This document shows, one piece after another, positions 29,392 through 35,359 of a stretch of 64,000 nt of DNA (position 1 is the stretch's first letter; each line of letters starts with the position of its first letter). The notes beneath the pieces were generated by a model. The model ran no database searches. It was not told where the DNA came from and saw nothing but the letters and a program-made list of their open reading frames with translations. Where the stretch lies: contig NZ_CP062983.1 in NCBI RefSeq assembly GCF_015500095.1, positions 5,084,001 to 5,148,000 of the forward strand, in the 5' to 3' direction. Origin of the DNA: Phototrophicus methaneseepsis (lineage in GTDB: Bacteria > Chloroflexota > Anaerolineae > Aggregatilineales > Phototrophicaceae). A program made the position numbers and the translations under genes.

Positions 29392-29426
29392 AAAAACGGG
29401 GCATCCAATGTGGGTGCCCCGTTTCA
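29392..29426. terminator. Terminator downstream of greA
   Basis: AACGGGGCATCC and GGGTGCCCCGTT form a long stem around AATGT, followed by TTCATT. An A run on the other flank makes it likely bidirectional, shared with the convergent repeat protein at 29451. Confidence 0.8.
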
Positions 29427-29450: not shown

Positions 29451-31196
29451 TTAGCTCAATGTGGGGTCGTTCAACCAGACATCTGTTGAGAAGAGCGTCG
29501 CACCTTCTATGAGGAGATTCTGGCTGTAGCCATAGGGTAACTCATAGATATTGTGATCATTCGCCACACCAATCGGCGCGACTTCAAAGCCGGTGCTGTT
29601 ATCAAAGACGCGCGTAACGGGTTCACAATCAATCTGGGTACTATCGGAGCAAATATCCAGCGTGACCTGTGCAACACCCCGATCCGGGAATTGTTCAATG
29701 TAATTGACGCGTACATTATTCCAGCCAACCTGTTCTTTACCGCCCTGGACGACTTGATCAGGGGCAATTGTTGCAGGCGGTGTCGCGCCCGTGATGATCT
29801 GGAGCAGCGGGCCGCTGCCAGTCGGCGTGGGTGTGGGCGCAGGCCCATTACACCATGTGGCATCACAGAAGGTCAGGGGTTGGACCCCTTCCATAGAAGG
29901 CAGAGACATAAAGGTTTCTTCAGAGAGCGTCGTCCAACGGCGATCAAGATAAACGGCAAAGTCATCGCCGCTGACGAACATCATGGTTGAATCGCTGTAA
30001 TTGCGATACCAGGCGCGGATTTCCGTACCCCATGGGACAGGCCCCATGTACTGGGTCGCTGCCAGGTCCAGGTAAGCAAACGCATTACGAGATTCCGCCA
30101 CATAGCGCTGATCAATCGCCTGGGCGACATCCTCCTCCGCAGGGGGGTTCTGCGCGGAGAAGCTGGCAGCAATATAAACTTCATTACAATAAGCCGAGCC
30201 CATAGCATCGCTGATAGGCAGTTCAAAGCCATAGACAAAATCAACAAGCTGCACTAGGCCCTGTAAATCCGTATTACAACGCGCCAGGGGGAGCTCTACG
30301 CCCTGCCAGCCACGTGGGCGCACCCCGACACCAAGCGTCACATCTGCAAGCACCTCAAGATCGTGGCGTAAGTTCCGGACCGCACTTAAATCACTGGTGC
30401 TGATGCTGGCATAAAATTCATCCGGGCGGTTACTCGGCCCCAGGATGTCATCCGATAGCAGGATCAGGTCATTGAGGTTATCCGTCAGCAGGGTGGGCGA
30501 GTTGATGTCTTTATTGCCCATCCAACCCTGTGGGCGCGTGTTCAGGCCCAGCAATTCATCCGCCAGACGTTCCAGATCACCGCGAACAGCCAGGTTCATT
30601 TCATCAATTTCAGCATCTGAGGGGGAACCCGTGTTACGCCCTTCCAGGTAATCACTCTGGATTTCCTGGCGCAAGGCACCACAGTAATTGGATACAGCCG
30701 GGTCCGTGACAAACTCAACACCGTAAGCGCTTTGCAGCATATAGGCCAAATTCATCAGATTACGGTCGCACAGAGCTAAGGGGTCTGTCGCACCGACCCA
30801 GCTATCCGGGCGAAGCCCTTCGCCGATTAAGTTATCAGCGGAAATTTCAACGTCATGGCGTACGTTGCGTGCCACAACCACCGGGTTTGCACTCGCCGCC
30901 CCGGTCCAATCATCTGGACGGATGCCCGAGCCGAAGACCGCATCAGCGACCAACTCATTATCAAACCACAAATCGGCCAGAATATTGGGGGTGTCGGTAT
31001 CGGCATTGCCGGTCCACATTTCTGGACGTGTGCCACCGCCAAAAGCGCGATCAGCCAGGGTTTCAATATCCAGGCGCAAGCCAATAAGCTGCGTCTGCGA
31101 TATGCCTTCCTGGTTTTGTGAATACACGATCACACTGCCGACCAATAATACTAAGGCACCTATCGCCATCCAACCGATACGGCTCAAGCGCTCCAT
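29451..31196 (-). CDS. Secreted protein with 36-residue RPxxW repeats
   Basis: 581 aa from ATG 31196, chosen because AAGGGGC lies upstream and the protein then starts with a signal anchor (about 8-25: WMAIGALVLLVGSVIVYS). The motif RPxxW/F recurs at residues 57, 93, 129, then 221, 257, 293, that is two blocks of three with an exact 36-residue step. Each block is followed by a matching Cys-containing module (Cys143/172 and Cys307/337). The C-terminal half has no such repeats but carries a Pro/Thr/Gly linker (PTPTPTGSGP) typical of this phylum's exoproteins, then a beta-rich end. No known domain is recognised; function unknown. Confidence 0.75.
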   Translation of the reverse strand: MERLSRIGWMAIGALVLLVGSVIVYSQNQEGISQTQLIGLRLDIETLADRAFGGGTRPEMWTGNADTDTPNILADLWFDNELVADAVFGSGIRPDDWTGAASANPVVVARNVRHDVEISADNLIGEGLRPDSWVGATDPLALCDRNLMNLAYMLQSAYGVEFVTDPAVSNYCGALRQEIQSDYLEGRNTGSPSDAEIDEMNLAVRGDLERLADELLGLNTRPQGWMGNKDINSPTLLTDNLNDLILLSDDILGPSNRPDEFYASISTSDLSAVRNLRHDLEVLADVTLGVGVRPRGWQGVELPLARCNTDLQGLVQLVDFVYGFELPISDAMGSAYCNEVYIAASFSAQNPPAEEDVAQAIDQRYVAESRNAFAYLDLAATQYMGPVPWGTEIRAWYRNYSDSTMMFVSGDDFAVYLDRRWTTLSEETFMSLPSMEGVQPLTFCDATWCNGPAPTPTPTGSGPLLQIITGATPPATIAPDQVVQGGKEQVGWNNVRVNYIEQFPDRGVAQVTLDICSDSTQIDCEPVTRVFDNSTGFEVAPIGVANDHNIYELPYGYSQNLLIEGATLFSTDVWLNDPTLS

Positions 31197-31615
31197 AACA
31201 GCCCCTTCTTTGGTGTGCTTCCGCCTGCGCACGGACCATCGTCGCCTACATCGCAGTCTATTTTGTAGTTCTTACACTGGCACAACGGACCCACAATCTC
31301 ACGGCAGCTTGCCCTCTACAGGAGGTAAGCTGTGTCTGTCGCATCGCCCTGGTATGATACTACGGTTTGATTATACATGCTGCACGGTATCTGCACAGCA
31401 ACGAGAGCATGGTGATTTCTTCCTACGTTTGGGCTAGTGGCATTTTGGCTACGAAACGGCTTTAACGCCACGTTTAAGCCAACCATGAAGAGCCTCATCA
31501 ATTCATCCAAACAAATTCATTCAAAATCACCCATCTTCTCATCCAATTTTTATGTTACATTGCCAGAGGAGTCAAGTGAACATCGTAACTGAGTGAAACA
31601 TTCTGAGGTTGTCCT
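31197..31615. other. Divergent intergenic region with imperfect palindrome
   Basis: 419 bases between the repeat protein and the divergent membrane protein. It holds GGCTTTAACG...CGTTTAAGCC at 31458-31480, a 10-bp inverted repeat with one mismatch, and no convincing open frame. Confidence 0.5.
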
Positions 31616-31963
31616 ATGCTAGGCATTATCATCATCGCCGTAATCCTGTCGGTCTTTGGCACAGTCGAACTCATTGGCAGTTGCTACGATCCAGCCTGGT
31701 ATCGTAAATGGTCCGGTTCGTATGAGCGCCTGATGTTGGGCGATAAAACAGTCCGCAGCATGGGGTTCGTCATGGGCGCACTCTTTACGGCGATTGGGCT
31801 TAGCCTGGGAATTGGCGTCGTTATCGAAGTTGGGCATAACTGGGCAGGCATCCTGGGGCTTAGCATAACCCTGGTCTTCGCACAAATCACCTACACCATC
31901 AGTGGTGCGACGCTCTTTGCAGCGCCAAAGGCCCGTCTGGCTTATCGCCGTAACAAACGCTAA
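31616..31963 (+). CDS. Small membrane protein of unknown function
   Basis: 115 aa. Three hydrophobic segments (about residues 1-22, 48-66 and 72-98), with a short soluble loop (YDPAWYRKWSGSYERLML) between the first and second. GAGG precedes the ATG by 8 bases. I recognise no family. It is monocistronic and ends at a hairpin terminator. Confidence 0.6.
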   Translation: MLGIIIIAVILSVFGTVELIGSCYDPAWYRKWSGSYERLMLGDKTVRSMGFVMGALFTAIGLSLGIGVVIEVGHNWAGILGLSITLVFAQITYTISGATLFAAPKARLAYRRNKR

Positions 31964-32062: not shown

Positions 32063-33490
32063 TTATTCCATTTCTGCGACTTCTGGCACCATCGCTGCGA
32101 AGACCACATTGCCATTGACCGTTACAGGCAGATCCGCGCCTTCAACTTCGCCGAACTCGTATTCACCCGCTTCGCCAGTGTCATAGTGCAACATGGGGTA
32201 CAGAGTATCTGTCATCATGCTTTCGTTCAGCTCAATGCTGATGTGGTGGTTCACACCAGGATATACCTGCGCCTGACCAATCACGGCACCAAAAGATCCT
32301 TCGCCATTATCTGCGTGAATGACAAGCCAGCCCGGAGCGTCGATCAAGGCCTGATCCATTGTCAGTGTGGTCCCATCCAGGGTGCCGTCATAAACAATAG
32401 ACGGCGCAGCAGCAATGGGGAACGTCACGACACTACCATCAATCACAACAGGGCCATCCGCACCTTCGACAGTCCCGAATTCATAGGTACCGATTTCGTT
32501 GGTATCCACATGGAGCATGGGGTACACAATCGGGGTTGCGACGCCATCCAGTTCAACGGTCACAGATTCGTTATAGCCATCTTCAACCGCGGCCACACCA
32601 ATCACCTCACCAAAAGTCAGGCTACCATCATCGGCATTTGTGGCGGCATGGATCACCAGGAAGCCAGGGCCATCACTCAGGACACTACCCATCACAGAGC
32701 CGCCCATCATATCCATACCATCGCCAGGGAGCACGATCTGATCTGCAACGCGGATATGCGGCACGGTCCAGATCGGCATGGTTGCCACGCTCGTACCTAC
32801 AGCCACCGGGCCATCTGCACCTTCAACAGTGCCAAACTCATACTCACCCGCTTCGCCGGTATCGTAGTGGAGCATCGGCCACAGAACGTCGGTCATTTCG
32901 CCATCCAGCTCAACAGTGACATCTGTCGTTGTGCCAGCGCTCACCTGTGTAAAGCCCAGGACTTCGCCGAAGCTCTCTGCGTCACCCGCATGGACCACGA
33001 CCCAACCATCTTCTGAGATGGTCACGGCGTCAATCGTTATGCTGTTCATATCAACAGTCTGATCATGAGCAGAAACGACTTCCGCCATAAAGGTGGGGGT
33101 GACTACTTCGCCGTCTACAGATACGGGGCCATCTGCACCTTCAACTTCGCCGAACTCGTATGTACCCACTTCGCCGGTGTCTTCGTGCAACATCGCGTAG
33201 AGGGTGCTGGTTGCGCGGCTGGTATCAATATCGACGACAACATTATAGTTGGCACCCGGATAAACGGGAGCATGACCAATAACTTCACCAAAAGAATCAC
33301 CATCTGCGGCGTGAATGACGATAAACCCACGGTCGGCACTATTCACCTGCTCAACCGTCACAGTGCCATCTGTAGAAACCTGATCAGAGACCGTGACTGC
33401 CGGATTAAAGTGATCTGCCATGACCAGAGAGCCGCTGAGTAAAGCCAGCGCCGCCACAACCATGCCAACAACAAAGCGTCTAATAATCAT
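32063..33490 (-). CDS. Secreted protein with four DUF7282-like domains
   Basis: 475 aa with signal peptide (residues about 1-25, ...SLVMADHFNP) and GGAGGAC before the ATG. Four tandem units of about 105-120 residues each have the pattern 'GFIVIHA...SFGEVIG...VTVELDG...YPMLHxDTGExGxYEFGxVEGADGPV', with VEGAD at residues 116, 222, 341 and 449. This is the DUF7282 module, known from secreted proteins of haloarchaea and some bacteria, probably a beta-sandwich. The third unit has an extra loop (DGMDMMGGSVMG). Function is unknown; exposure at the cell surface is likely. Confidence 0.82.
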   Translation of the reverse strand: MIIRRFVVGMVVAALALLSGSLVMADHFNPAVTVSDQVSTDGTVTVEQVNSADRGFIVIHAADGDSFGEVIGHAPVYPGANYNVVVDIDTSRATSTLYAMLHEDTGEVGTYEFGEVEGADGPVSVDGEVVTPTFMAEVVSAHDQTVDMNSITIDAVTISEDGWVVVHAGDAESFGEVLGFTQVSAGTTTDVTVELDGEMTDVLWPMLHYDTGEAGEYEFGTVEGADGPVAVGTSVATMPIWTVPHIRVADQIVLPGDGMDMMGGSVMGSVLSDGPGFLVIHAATNADDGSLTFGEVIGVAAVEDGYNESVTVELDGVATPIVYPMLHVDTNEIGTYEFGTVEGADGPVVIDGSVVTFPIAAAPSIVYDGTLDGTTLTMDQALIDAPGWLVIHADNGEGSFGAVIGQAQVYPGVNHHISIELNESMMTDTLYPMLHYDTGEAGEYEFGEVEGADLPVTVNGNVVFAAMVPEVAEME

Positions 33491-33744: not shown

Positions 33745-34401
33745 TTAACGGCCTGAGAGGCGGCTGATGCGGTCATCATCTTCGTCGTCATCAGGTACAG
33801 ATGGCGCTGTATTTTGCAGGGCCTCTAAATGGCGATCAATCTGGCGTATATTGTCCAGATGATCAGCATCTTCCAGATAATTCAACATAGCCGTCATAAT
33901 CGTCGGCATTAGCGAGAGCGCGACGGGAGCCATTCTGGGGTCTTCTTTGACGAGCGCTTCCATTTCATCAATCAGGACGCCCATGCCGTCAATCATCATC
34001 ACCATGAGCATGACAGTGCGGTTGACCGCATTCGAAAGTGCCTTGGGGCGGGCCTGGGCATTCAAAACCATATAACTAGATGCCAGCAGAACCGGAGTCA
34101 TCTGTAAGATCACGAGGTTCATGGCCAGCAAGAGCGCTTGTTTTACTTCTTCCGGTAATTCTTGTCGTTCGGCCTGTTCCTGTACAGCCCGGGCCAAACG
34201 CGCCATGATCGTCGCTGCCAGACGGCTGGGTGCACGTTCCAGCGGGGCACGTACCAACATGTCATGGACCGCTTCTAAGCTGGCATTCTGCTCGGCTGCC
34301 TCCGGTGCTTGCTGCAAATGCCTTAACAATTCGGCTTCGCGCTGCGCATCCAGGTTTCCATCGAGGCGTTCTTGCATCATTTCGCTATAGTACTCGGTCA
34401 T
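33745..34401 (-). CDS. Probable anti-sigma factor
   Basis: 218 aa. N-terminal YSEMMQERLDGNLDAQREAELLRHLQQAPEAAE looks like the zf-HC2/anti-sigma helix pair but lacks the Cys residues. The middle has two weakly hydrophobic helices (about 88-112, LLLAMNLVILQMTPVLLASSYMVL, and 122-148) that may span the membrane. The C-terminus is acidic (PDDDEDDDRI). It lies downstream of the ECF sigma gene at 34643 on the same strand, separated by 241 bases, and is therefore a good candidate for its antagonist. Confidence 0.7.
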   Translation of the reverse strand: MTEYYSEMMQERLDGNLDAQREAELLRHLQQAPEAAEQNASLEAVHDMLVRAPLERAPSRLAATIMARLARAVQEQAERQELPEEVKQALLLAMNLVILQMTPVLLASSYMVLNAQARPKALSNAVNRTVMLMVMMIDGMGVLIDEMEALVKEDPRMAPVALSLMPTIMTAMLNYLEDADHLDNIRQIDRHLEALQNTAPSVPDDDEDDDRISRLSGR

Positions 34402-34596: not shown

Positions 34597-34655
34597 CATT
34601 CTTGCAGCTTGATTCATGCAGCTTGGTTCATGCAGGCATTCATCATTCTTGCAGC
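34597..34655. repeat. Short direct repeats near the ECF sigma stop
   Basis: ATTCTTGCAGC occurs twice and TTGATTCATGCAG/TTGGTTCATGCAG alternate between the two copies, over about 60 bases that include the last codons of the sigma gene. Possibly a local slippage tract. Confidence 0.35.
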
Positions 34656-35359
34656 AACCGTGGATTAATAGGCCGATCATCATCAGCGGGGATATTCAGC
34701 CCTTGCTGATAGAGATCCGCCAACAAACGGCGTGCCCGAAACAGCCGACTTTTAATGGCACTTTCAGTCGTCTCCAGCATGTCTGCAATTTCCGCGTAGG
34801 AATAGTCGTACCAATAGCGGTAGACTACAGCAGCCCGGTCATCCGGCTTGAGTTCATTCAGCAAGAGTTGAATATGCTGACCCCGCTCATTGTCGATAGC
34901 CGCTTGTTCCGGGCCAGGTTCGTCACTGCTGAGCGCTAAGGCCATCCCAGAGGGCAGCGGTTCGTCGAGCGAAAGGTACTGCATCCGACGCTTACGCAGT
35001 CTATCAATGCAATGATTTGATGTAATGGATAAAAGCCAGGTCTTAAAAGAACGGGCAACATCATAGCGATGCAAATTATTGTAGGCGCGGATGAACGCCT
35101 CCTGGGTCGCATCTTCGGCTTCTGTGCCTTCACCCAACATACGATAGCAAAGGTTGTATACAGCATCCTGAAAACTATAAACGATCTCAGCGAAGGCATC
35201 CTGGTTGCCTTCTAAAGCCAACATAATCCATTCGTTTAATTTCGCATCCGGTTCAGTCACTACCTCCCCCTGCGATTCCTCACAGCCGAGCGTGGCCGTG
35301 CTAGCATTGGCATGGAGCCGAACAGAGCTGTTCTTGTTCATCACAACGGAACTCCGCAT
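34643..35359 (-). CDS. ECF sigma-70 factor (RpoE-like)
   Basis: 238 aa. Region 2 (AFAEIVYSFQDAVYNLCYRMLG, EDATQEAFIRAYNNLHRYD, FKTWLLSITSNHCIDRLRKRR) and region 4 (LNELKPDDRAAVVYRYWYDYSYAEIADMLETTESAIKSRLFRARRLLA) are intact. A linker of about 30 residues between them is acidic. The N-terminal 40 residues are extra relative to typical ECF factors, so the true start may be the ATG at 35341 or further in. It diverges from the gene at 35474. A downstream probable anti-sigma gene completes the pair. Confidence 0.92.
   Translation of the reverse strand: MRSSVVMNKNSSVRLHANASTATLGCEESQGEVVTEPDAKLNEWIMLALEGNQDAFAEIVYSFQDAVYNLCYRMLGEGTEAEDATQEAFIRAYNNLHRYDVARSFKTWLLSITSNHCIDRLRKRRMQYLSLDEPLPSGMALALSSDEPGPEQAAIDNERGQHIQLLLNELKPDDRAAVVYRYWYDYSYAEIADMLETTESAIKSRLFRARRLLADLYQQGLNIPADDDRPINPRLLQE

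What the first reader, a model, noticed from the sequence alone, without database searches (positions are those of the whole stretch)
29451..31196. Exact 36-residue RPxxW repeat inside a 164-residue duplication
In the secreted protein the motif RPxxW/F occurs at residues 57, 93, 129 and again at 221, 257, 293, so the step is exactly 36 residues within each block and the blocks are offset by 164. Each block is followed by a similar module with paired cysteines (143/172 and 307/337). I know of no named repeat with this pattern. It looks like a new solenoid or multivalent binding repeat built by two rounds of duplication.
Basis: seen in the sequence. Interest (0 to 1): 0.65.

Follow-up and report, generated by a model that had tools for sequence, protein, structure and literature searches.

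The report
New three-repeat domain in secreted proteins
A probably secreted protein of a deep-sea Chloroflexota bacterium carries a previously unnamed helical domain made of three 36-residue repeats and a cysteine-paired cap, present twice; relatives in one bacterial order carry the same domain once or twice, perhaps as a cell-surface building block whose job is not yet known.

Summary
The minus-strand gene 29451-31196 encodes 581 aa with RPxxW/F at 57, 93, 129, 221, 257, 293 and Cys pairs 143/172 and 307/337. Self-similarity peaks at lags 164 and 36; the blocks align at E 6e-30. Units triplicated first, the block later.

The 'solenoid/multivalent repeat' reading is only partly supported. In 64 distinct relatives the three-unit, Cys-capped block occurs once (24) or twice (40); a separate unit search of 154 genomes mostly gives multiples of three. 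An AlphaFold model of block 2 (pLDDT 86, pTM 0.83) has one helix plus one ordered RPxxW loop per unit, unlike two-helix solenoids. No Pfam, NCBIfam or PDB relative was found; apart from two marginal hits, matches lie in two families of one order.

All 64 carry the next domain, probably SH3b-like (moderate support); 7 of 24 one-block paralogues start with PBP_like_2. I read block plus SH3b-like domain as an envelope attachment/recognition module; function untested.

The parts
29451..31196 (-). gene for the 581-aa two-block RPxxW protein
   Evidence: ORF list; motif and Cys positions; 59 of 98 same-family genomes hold a relative
31116..31196 (-). N-terminal signal peptide-like segment (residues 1-27, inferred)
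   Evidence: hydrophobic stretch read from sequence; some paralogues end it in SAQD or AFAQE; no signal-peptide predictor was available
30984..31091 (-). block 1 unit 1 (residues 36-71, RP at 57)
30876..30983 (-). block 1 unit 2 (residues 72-107, RP at 93)
30768..30875 (-). block 1 unit 3 (residues 108-143, RP at 129)
30681..30770 (-). block 1 cap (Cys143 to Cys172, disulfide inferred)
   Evidence: both Cys kept in 104 of 104 blocks
30492..30599 (-). block 2 unit 1 (residues 200-235, RP at 221)
   Evidence: helix and ordered loop in model
30384..30491 (-). block 2 unit 2 (residues 236-271, RP at 257)
30276..30383 (-). block 2 unit 3 (residues 272-307, RP at 293)
30186..30278 (-). block 2 cap (Cys307 to Cys337, disulfide inferred)
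   Evidence: both Cys kept in 104 of 104 blocks; two short helices in model
29850..30104 (-). probable SH3b-like domain ending in C-x4-C (residues 365-449)
   Evidence: present in 64 of 64 relatives; profile-profile hits to this genome's SH3_3 domains; no direct Pfam hit
29454..29849 (-). PTPTPTG linker and orphan C-terminal domain with Cys516/524 (residues 450-581)
   Evidence: 39 of 40 two-block and 4 of 24 one-block relatives (the exception L155 is cut by a contig end); beta strands in the low-confidence full-length model; no family match of note
31202..31210 (-). Shine-Dalgarno-like AAGAAGGGG before the ATG
   Evidence: sequence read
34643..35359 (-). ECF sigma factor upstream; likely orthologue (64-84% identity) near the gene in 4 of 21 other genomes examined
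33745..34401 (-). anti-sigma-factor-like protein paired with the ECF sigma factor
   Evidence: weak NCBIfam matches below their cut-offs; relatives beside the sigma factor

Best explanation
The RPxxW region is a new, fixed-size domain: three 36-residue units, each one alpha helix (R-x-D-L-E-x-L-A-D) followed by an ordered loop (R-P-x-G-W-x-G), closed by a helical cap with a conserved Cys pair. The unit was triplicated, then the whole block was duplicated in tandem before the two bacterial families that carry it split. The domain sits in probably exported proteins of one Chloroflexota order and is followed by a probably SH3b-like domain in all 64 relatives kept. I infer that block plus SH3b-like domain is an envelope-attachment and recognition module: the SH3b-like domain associates with the wall, the block(s) bind another surface protein or glycan, and in some paralogues the module positions a PBP_like_2 (phosphate-binding-protein-like) domain at the cell surface. 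Shown: repeat anatomy, duplication order, unit count and Cys pairs, domain partners, taxonomic range within the samples searched. Predicted: the fold. Inferred: export, disulfide bonds, wall association, binding role.
For: Motif, spacing and self-similarity. Of 64 distinct proteins 40 have two blocks and 24 one. RP kept in 295 of 312 units, the aromatic W in 306 of 312, both Cys in 104 of 104 blocks. Equivalent units of the two blocks most alike (mean BLOSUM62 1.90, 1.83, 2.20 against 1.14-1.46 for other pairs, shuffled -1.06); 36 N-blocks and 36 C-blocks each one clade with both families in it. Confident block model, one helix per unit. The domain after the block is found in 64 of 64 relatives, the C-terminal one in 43, so block and middle domain are the constant pair. 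SH3b-like: profile-profile score 21.0 with all 52 members and 26.3 (probability 51%) with the 20 one-block ones, maxima of 200 column permutations 18.5 and 17.6; two unrelated alignments give 0.1%. PBP_like_2 in front in 7 and PPC in 1 of 24 one-block paralogues. Transpeptidase domains in 98 of 98 family genomes, so a wall is likely.
Against: The SH3b assignment fails single-sequence tests: no SH3 hit among 35 members in Pfam and an SH3 HMM scores real and shuffled sequences much alike (best 7.5 against 7.1 bits); only about 32 columns align, and the one-block subset was tried after the weaker all-member result. Transpeptidases occur equally in family genomes without the domain, so there is no phyletic link to the wall. 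16 of 24 one-block paralogues have no N-terminal Pfam domain over its cut-off. No neighbour is kept generally. No coordinates were available to see whether RPxxW loops are exposed; invariant residues may be only structural. No expression or binding data seen.
Confidence: 0.45

Rival explanations
1. The blocks are rigid structural spacers (a stalk) that hold the SH3b-like and C-terminal domains away from the membrane or wall, with no ligand of their own; the invariant residues only stabilise the fold.
For: The same R, D, E, RP and W positions recur in the units, which fits a structural network; tandem doubling adds length; a PT-rich linker follows the middle domain.
Against: Only one or two blocks occur in the 64 proteins, whereas stalks usually vary in length (general knowledge); block and middle domain stay paired in 64 of 64 although the C-terminal domain is missing in 21.
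Confidence: 0.25
2. It belongs to a solute-capture or signalling system: block plus SH3b-like domain is the partner or dimerisation part of an extracellular PBP_like_2 sensor, and the two-block protein is its separate receptor.
For: PBP_like_2 in front of the block in 7 of 24 one-block paralogues, including this genome's own; in this genome and its congener the paralogue follows a gene read here as FHA-TM-SH3b; ABC-transporter ATPase relatives lie near the paralogue in 3 genomes (own and congener, several kb upstream; L053, directly upstream with a permease-like ORF); 39 of 65 positive genomes have exactly 9 units, as expected for one two-block plus one one-block protein.
Against: 16 of 24 one-block paralogues show no N-terminal Pfam domain over its cut-off; the FHA-TM-SH3b neighbour was seen only within the genus; ABC ATPases are common genes, so 3 genomes may be chance; no neighbour is general.
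Confidence: 0.15
3. One reading: an extendable solenoid with multivalent peptide or ligand binding along its length.
For: Tandem near-equal units with conserved polar and aromatic residues.
Confidence: 0.08
4. An enzyme of a new kind whose active site uses the conserved Arg, Asp, Glu and Trp.
For: Conserved polar residues; probably secreted; one insignificant hmmsearch hit of the block profile to a muramidase (E 1.3).
Against: The residues recur in each of three to six units, unlike a single active site; no enzyme-family match of note.
Confidence: 0.07

Closest known systems
Two-helix alpha-solenoids (TPR, Sel1-like, HEAT, ARM; unit lengths recalled, 34-40 residues)
   Same: Similar unit length and alpha-helical tandem repetition.
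   Different: One helix plus one ordered loop per unit in the model; three units and a Cys-paired cap; probably extracellular; none among the Pfam hits of 55 blocks.
Bacterial SH3 (SH3_3, PF08239) domains
   Same: The domain after the block matches the centre of this genome's own SH3_3 domains in profile comparison.
   Different: Not detected by Pfam models; aligned over about 32 columns only; ends in an added C-x4-C pair.
PBP_like_2 (PF12849) phosphate-binding-protein-like domains
   Same: Fused in front of the block in this genome's paralogue and 6 others of 24 scanned.
   Different: The window protein has no such domain.
DUF4214 and dockerin-type repeats (recalled, no call compared them)
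   Same: Secreted bacterial repeats with helices and polar loops.
   Different: Motifs and unit lengths differ; neither is among the Pfam hits of 55 blocks at E up to 1.

Membership tests
Two-helix alpha-solenoid repeats (TPR/Sel1/HEAT/ARM) | each unit is a helical hairpin | tested here: not met
   block 2 model has helices 3-25, 45-61 and 78-97, one per 36-residue unit, with ordered loops between; a prediction from 6 sequences, not a solved structure
Two-helix alpha-solenoid repeats (TPR/Sel1/HEAT/ARM) | sequence profile match | tested here: not met
   none among the 5 Pfam families hit by any of 55 blocks at E up to 1
Two-helix alpha-solenoid repeats (TPR/Sel1/HEAT/ARM) | similar fold in the PDB | tested here: inconclusive
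   Foldseek: none at E <= 0.001; VIA-align second look best Z 5.6, which its own notes say may mean only a common arrangement
SH3b / SH3_3 (residues 365-449) | Pfam SH3_3 match over cut-off | tested here: not met
   none for the window protein; SH3_3 not among the 8 families hit by any of 35 domain members
SH3b / SH3_3 (residues 365-449) | profile-profile relationship to SH3_3 domains | tested here: inconclusive
   probability 14.6-51%, no permutation of 200 as high in two tests, unrelated alignments 0.1%, but only about 32 columns aligned
SH3b / SH3_3 (residues 365-449) | SH3 barrel in a structure | tested here: inconclusive
   strands at 394-400, 403-410 and 413-417 in the full-length model, but pLDDT near 30 there
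SH3b / SH3_3 (residues 365-449) | binds cell wall | not testable with these tools
   needs a pull-down
PBP_like_2 | PF12849 match over cut-off in the window protein | tested here: not met
   no Pfam hit; met only in paralogues

The most novel reading that the evidence does not exclude
The block is a new protein fold: a closed three-repeat domain with one helix and one RPxxW loop per repeat, disulfide-capped, invented in one Chloroflexota order and used as a general cell-surface recognition module that can be fused to different sensor or binding domains.
Probability: 0.35. Interest if true: 0.55.

Novelty: new variant of a known kind. Interest (0 to 1): 0.4.

Why it matters
If right, it adds a named, lineage-restricted extracellular domain with a clean duplication history to the cell surface of these Chloroflexota, gives annotators a profile that matches 64 of the 154 genomes of the order searched here, and offers a small Cys-capped repeat domain that could be solved quickly. 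A one-helix-one-loop unit repeated a fixed three times would also interest people who classify repeat folds.

Tried and rejected
Solenoid with variable repeat count: disfavoured by the unit counts. The 64 proteins were found with a three-unit profile, so (single-unit profile) is the fairer test; 14 of its 65 positive genomes have counts that are not multiples of three (1, 5, 7, 8 or 10), which I put down to fragments and degenerate units without checking each.

Conserved operon: around the two-block gene in 22 distinct genomes (L032 is the same genome as L083 and is counted once) no partner is general. A likely orthologous ECF sigma factor (64-84% identity) lies within 1.4 kb upstream on the same strand in 3 (L080, L083, L085), 3.4 kb upstream in the window, and 3.9 kb downstream on the other strand in L095; an anti-sigma relative accompanies it in 4 of these 5. 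More distant sigma relatives (25-33%) lie nearby in 3 others; 14 of 22 show no direct match. This genome has 29 Sigma70_r4_2 matches. Too patchy for an operon claim.

Paralogue neighbourhoods: of 33 loci given, 6 lost the block gene in my greedy ORF choice or because it is cut, and were not read. Nothing was general among the rest.

Phyletic correlates: transpeptidase in 98 of 98 and Photo_RC in 2 of 98 family genomes; neither explains which genomes carry the domain.

Mobile origin: no relative in viral contigs, plasmids or phages.

Fold search: no Foldseek match at E <= 0.001 in PDB or viral models; best VIA-align Z 5.6. No library of predicted cellular structures was on hand, so a relative there is not excluded.

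Weak family hits set aside as chance: Imm35 in one paralogue (19.7 bits, cut-off 27.5; also 1 of 55 blocks), SidE_DUB in 2 of 35 middle domains (best E 7.9e-4) and in one whole paralogue below its cut-off, muramidase E 1.3, sperm acrosome-associated protein 9 E 0.12, LPxTATN sorting signal E 0.074 on the signal-like segment. The class-level hit in G167 (E 3.9e-4) lies in another family; the locus holds a TPTPT-rich ORF, so I take it for low complexity, not proven. G477 (E 0.009) was not followed.

Full-length AlphaFold with 3 sequences was poor (pLDDT 54, pTM 0.29) and was not used for a fold search.

Literature: 'RPxxW' (0 papers), Chloroflexota with helical-repeat or solenoid terms, Chloroflexi with SH3 and surface terms and lineage names (15 of 42 papers listed) showed nothing that I recognised as describing this domain; only these listings were seen. 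Two ZRK33 papers were seen in passages only. The library lacks most subscription papers.

Full report
What was found. The finding's coordinates 29451-31196 hold one ORF on the minus strand. Its ATG start at 31196 follows an AAGAAGGGG run, so the 581-aa form is likelier than the 593-aa GTG form. The genome is one contig of 5,631,885 bases; a passage of PMC8941918 gives exactly that size for Phototrophicus methaneseepsis ZRK33, so I take it to be that strain.

The repeats are real. Against 20,000 shuffles with a mean of 0.09 and a maximum of 4 motifs, six are present; self-similarity peaks at lags 164, 200, 36, 236 and 128, i.e. 164 and its sums and differences with 36. The two blocks align at 38% identity, E 6e-30.

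How it was built. From the loci fetched I kept 64 distinct proteins with the block: 40 with two blocks, 24 with one, none with more. Identical sequences and ORFs cut by a contig end were dropped, except L155, and loci fetched repeat genomes already held and were not added. These are the better or selected matches, not every match in every genome. In the two-block proteins unit 1 of block 1 is most like unit 1 of block 2, and likewise for units 2 and 3 (1.90, 1.83 and 2.20 against 1.14-1.46 for other pairs; shuffled mean -1.06). So the unit was triplicated first and the block duplicated later. In a tree of 104 blocks, 36 N-blocks and 36 C-blocks form separate clades, each with both bacterial families; the 24 one-block paralogues fall in a third group, which also holds both blocks of a second two-block paralogue of family f3, suggesting a second, independent block duplication there. 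The tree rests on 141 columns, 27 inner branches are open, and its root is arbitrary.

What is kept. RP is kept in 295 of 312 units, the aromatic W in 306 of 312 and both Cys in 104 of 104 blocks. The step from unit 1 to 2 is exactly 36 in 93 of 104 blocks, from unit 2 to 3 in 59 of 104. The unit consensus is R-x-D-L-E-x-L-A-D-x3-G-x3-R-P-x-G-W-x-G. Because the blocks were found with a three-unit profile, I also searched 154 genomes of the order with a single-unit profile: 65 have matches, 39 of them exactly nine and 51 a multiple of three, none more than ten (counts totalled). Nine is what one two-block plus one one-block protein would give.

Where it occurs. Relatives of the whole protein: 59 of 98 genomes of the same family; 18 of 396 genomes of the class, of which 15 are in this family, 2 in family f3 and 1 (G167) a weak match that I take for low complexity. 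Relatives of the block: 64 of 154 genomes of the order, 59 in this family and 5 in f3, and 2 of 400 genomes of the phylum, both in this family. A pattern scan of one genome for each of 84,980 species, which finds close relatives only, gave 2 loci, both titled Anaerolineales/Anaerolineae. None in viral contigs, plasmids or phages. The middle and the C-terminal domain each match in 8 of 249 genomes of the class, the same eight. So distant relatives outside the phylum are not excluded.

What the block looks like. With six rows (two blocks each from the window, L032 and L033) AlphaFold2 gives pLDDT 86.4 and pTM 0.83 for block 2: helices at 3-25, 45-61 and 78-97, one per unit, ordered loops with RPxxW between them, then two shorter helices at 118-131 and 143-153; one conserved Cys stands just before the first of these and the other inside the second. 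The low-confidence full-length model shows a similar helix order in block 1. No coordinates are returned by the tool, so I could not see whether the RPxxW loops are buried, nor whether the shape is closed. Foldseek finds nothing at E <= 0.001 in the PDB or in viral models; the VIA second look has a best Z of 5.6, which by its own notes may mean only a common arrangement. Sequence searches of Pfam, NCBIfam and PDB give no relative.

The rest of the protein. Residues 365-449 look like a divergent bacterial SH3 domain. The profile of 52 members against 25 SH3_3 domains of this genome scores 21.0 (probability 14.6%), above all 200 column permutations, whose maximum is 18.5. The 20 one-block members alone, tried afterwards, score 26.3 (51%) against a permutation maximum of 17.6. 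The block and the C-terminal domain, as unrelated alignments, give 0.1%. Against this, SH3 is not among the Pfam hits of 35 members, no PDB chain is hit and single sequences hardly beat shuffled ones. I hold it as probable. This domain is present in 64 of 64 relatives; a PT-rich linker and an orphan C-terminal domain with its own Cys pair follow in 39 of 40 two-block and 4 of 24 one-block proteins, the one exception among the former being cut by a contig end.

Partners. In this genome a paralogue (L034) carries PBP_like_2 (E 1.4e-22), one block and the SH3b-like domain. Of the 24 one-block paralogues kept, 7 have PBP_like_2, 1 has PPC and 16 nothing over a cut-off. In this genome and its congener the paralogue follows a gene that I read as FHA-TM-SH3b; the SH3_3 part is a tool match, the rest is my reading. 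ABC-transporter ATPase relatives lie near the paralogue in 3 genomes. A likely orthologous ECF sigma factor lies near the two-block gene in 5 of 22 distinct genomes including this one.

Mechanism. Shown: anatomy, conservation, duplication history, domain partners. Predicted: the fold. Inferred: export (hydrophobic N-terminus, even number of conserved Cys), disulfide pairing, wall association through the SH3b-like domain, and a recognition role for the block. I prefer an attachment/recognition module because block and middle domain stay together in 64 of 64 while the N-terminal partner changes and the C-terminal domain is absent from 20 of 24 one-block forms. A pure spacer is the main rival. 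Transpeptidases in 98 of 98 family genomes make a wall likely but show no correlation with the domain.

Verdict. Function remains open, so the interest is moderate.

Noticed in passing
whole genome (G000): No Photo_RC (PF00124) match in this genome, though PMC8941918 states that ZRK33 has type II reaction-centre genes (passages seen). The same search finds strong matches in a relative (G037, E 1.8e-82) and in the Synechococcus control, so the absence is worth a check; withheld or masked stretches are not excluded.
   Followed up: partly
32063-33490 (minus): Neighbouring protein made of four DUF7282 domains (E 2.6e-84). It and the 115-aa ORF at 31616-31963 lie between the anti-sigma gene and the RPxxW gene here, but in the congener L080 the anti-sigma relative ends 114 bp upstream of the RPxxW gene.
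   Followed up: partly
whole genome (G000): 72 SH3_3 matches at E <= 0.01 (58 over the cut-off) in one genome, which looks rich in bacterial SH3 domains (my judgement; no comparison genome was counted).
   Followed up: no
L161:1125-3200 (upstream of the paralogue): Gene read as FHA, transmembrane, Ig-like and SH3b regions in one protein: a possible inside-to-outside signalling protein next to the PBP_like_2-block paralogue.
   Followed up: partly
L150, L152, L154, L155 (family f3): A second two-block paralogue whose blocks both group with the one-block proteins, suggesting an independent repeat of the block duplication.
   Followed up: partly
29394-29424: Hairpin of 14 pairs between the converging GreA-like gene and the RPxxW gene, possibly a shared terminator; the scan found 3 terminator-like sites against 2.1 expected.
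   Followed up: no
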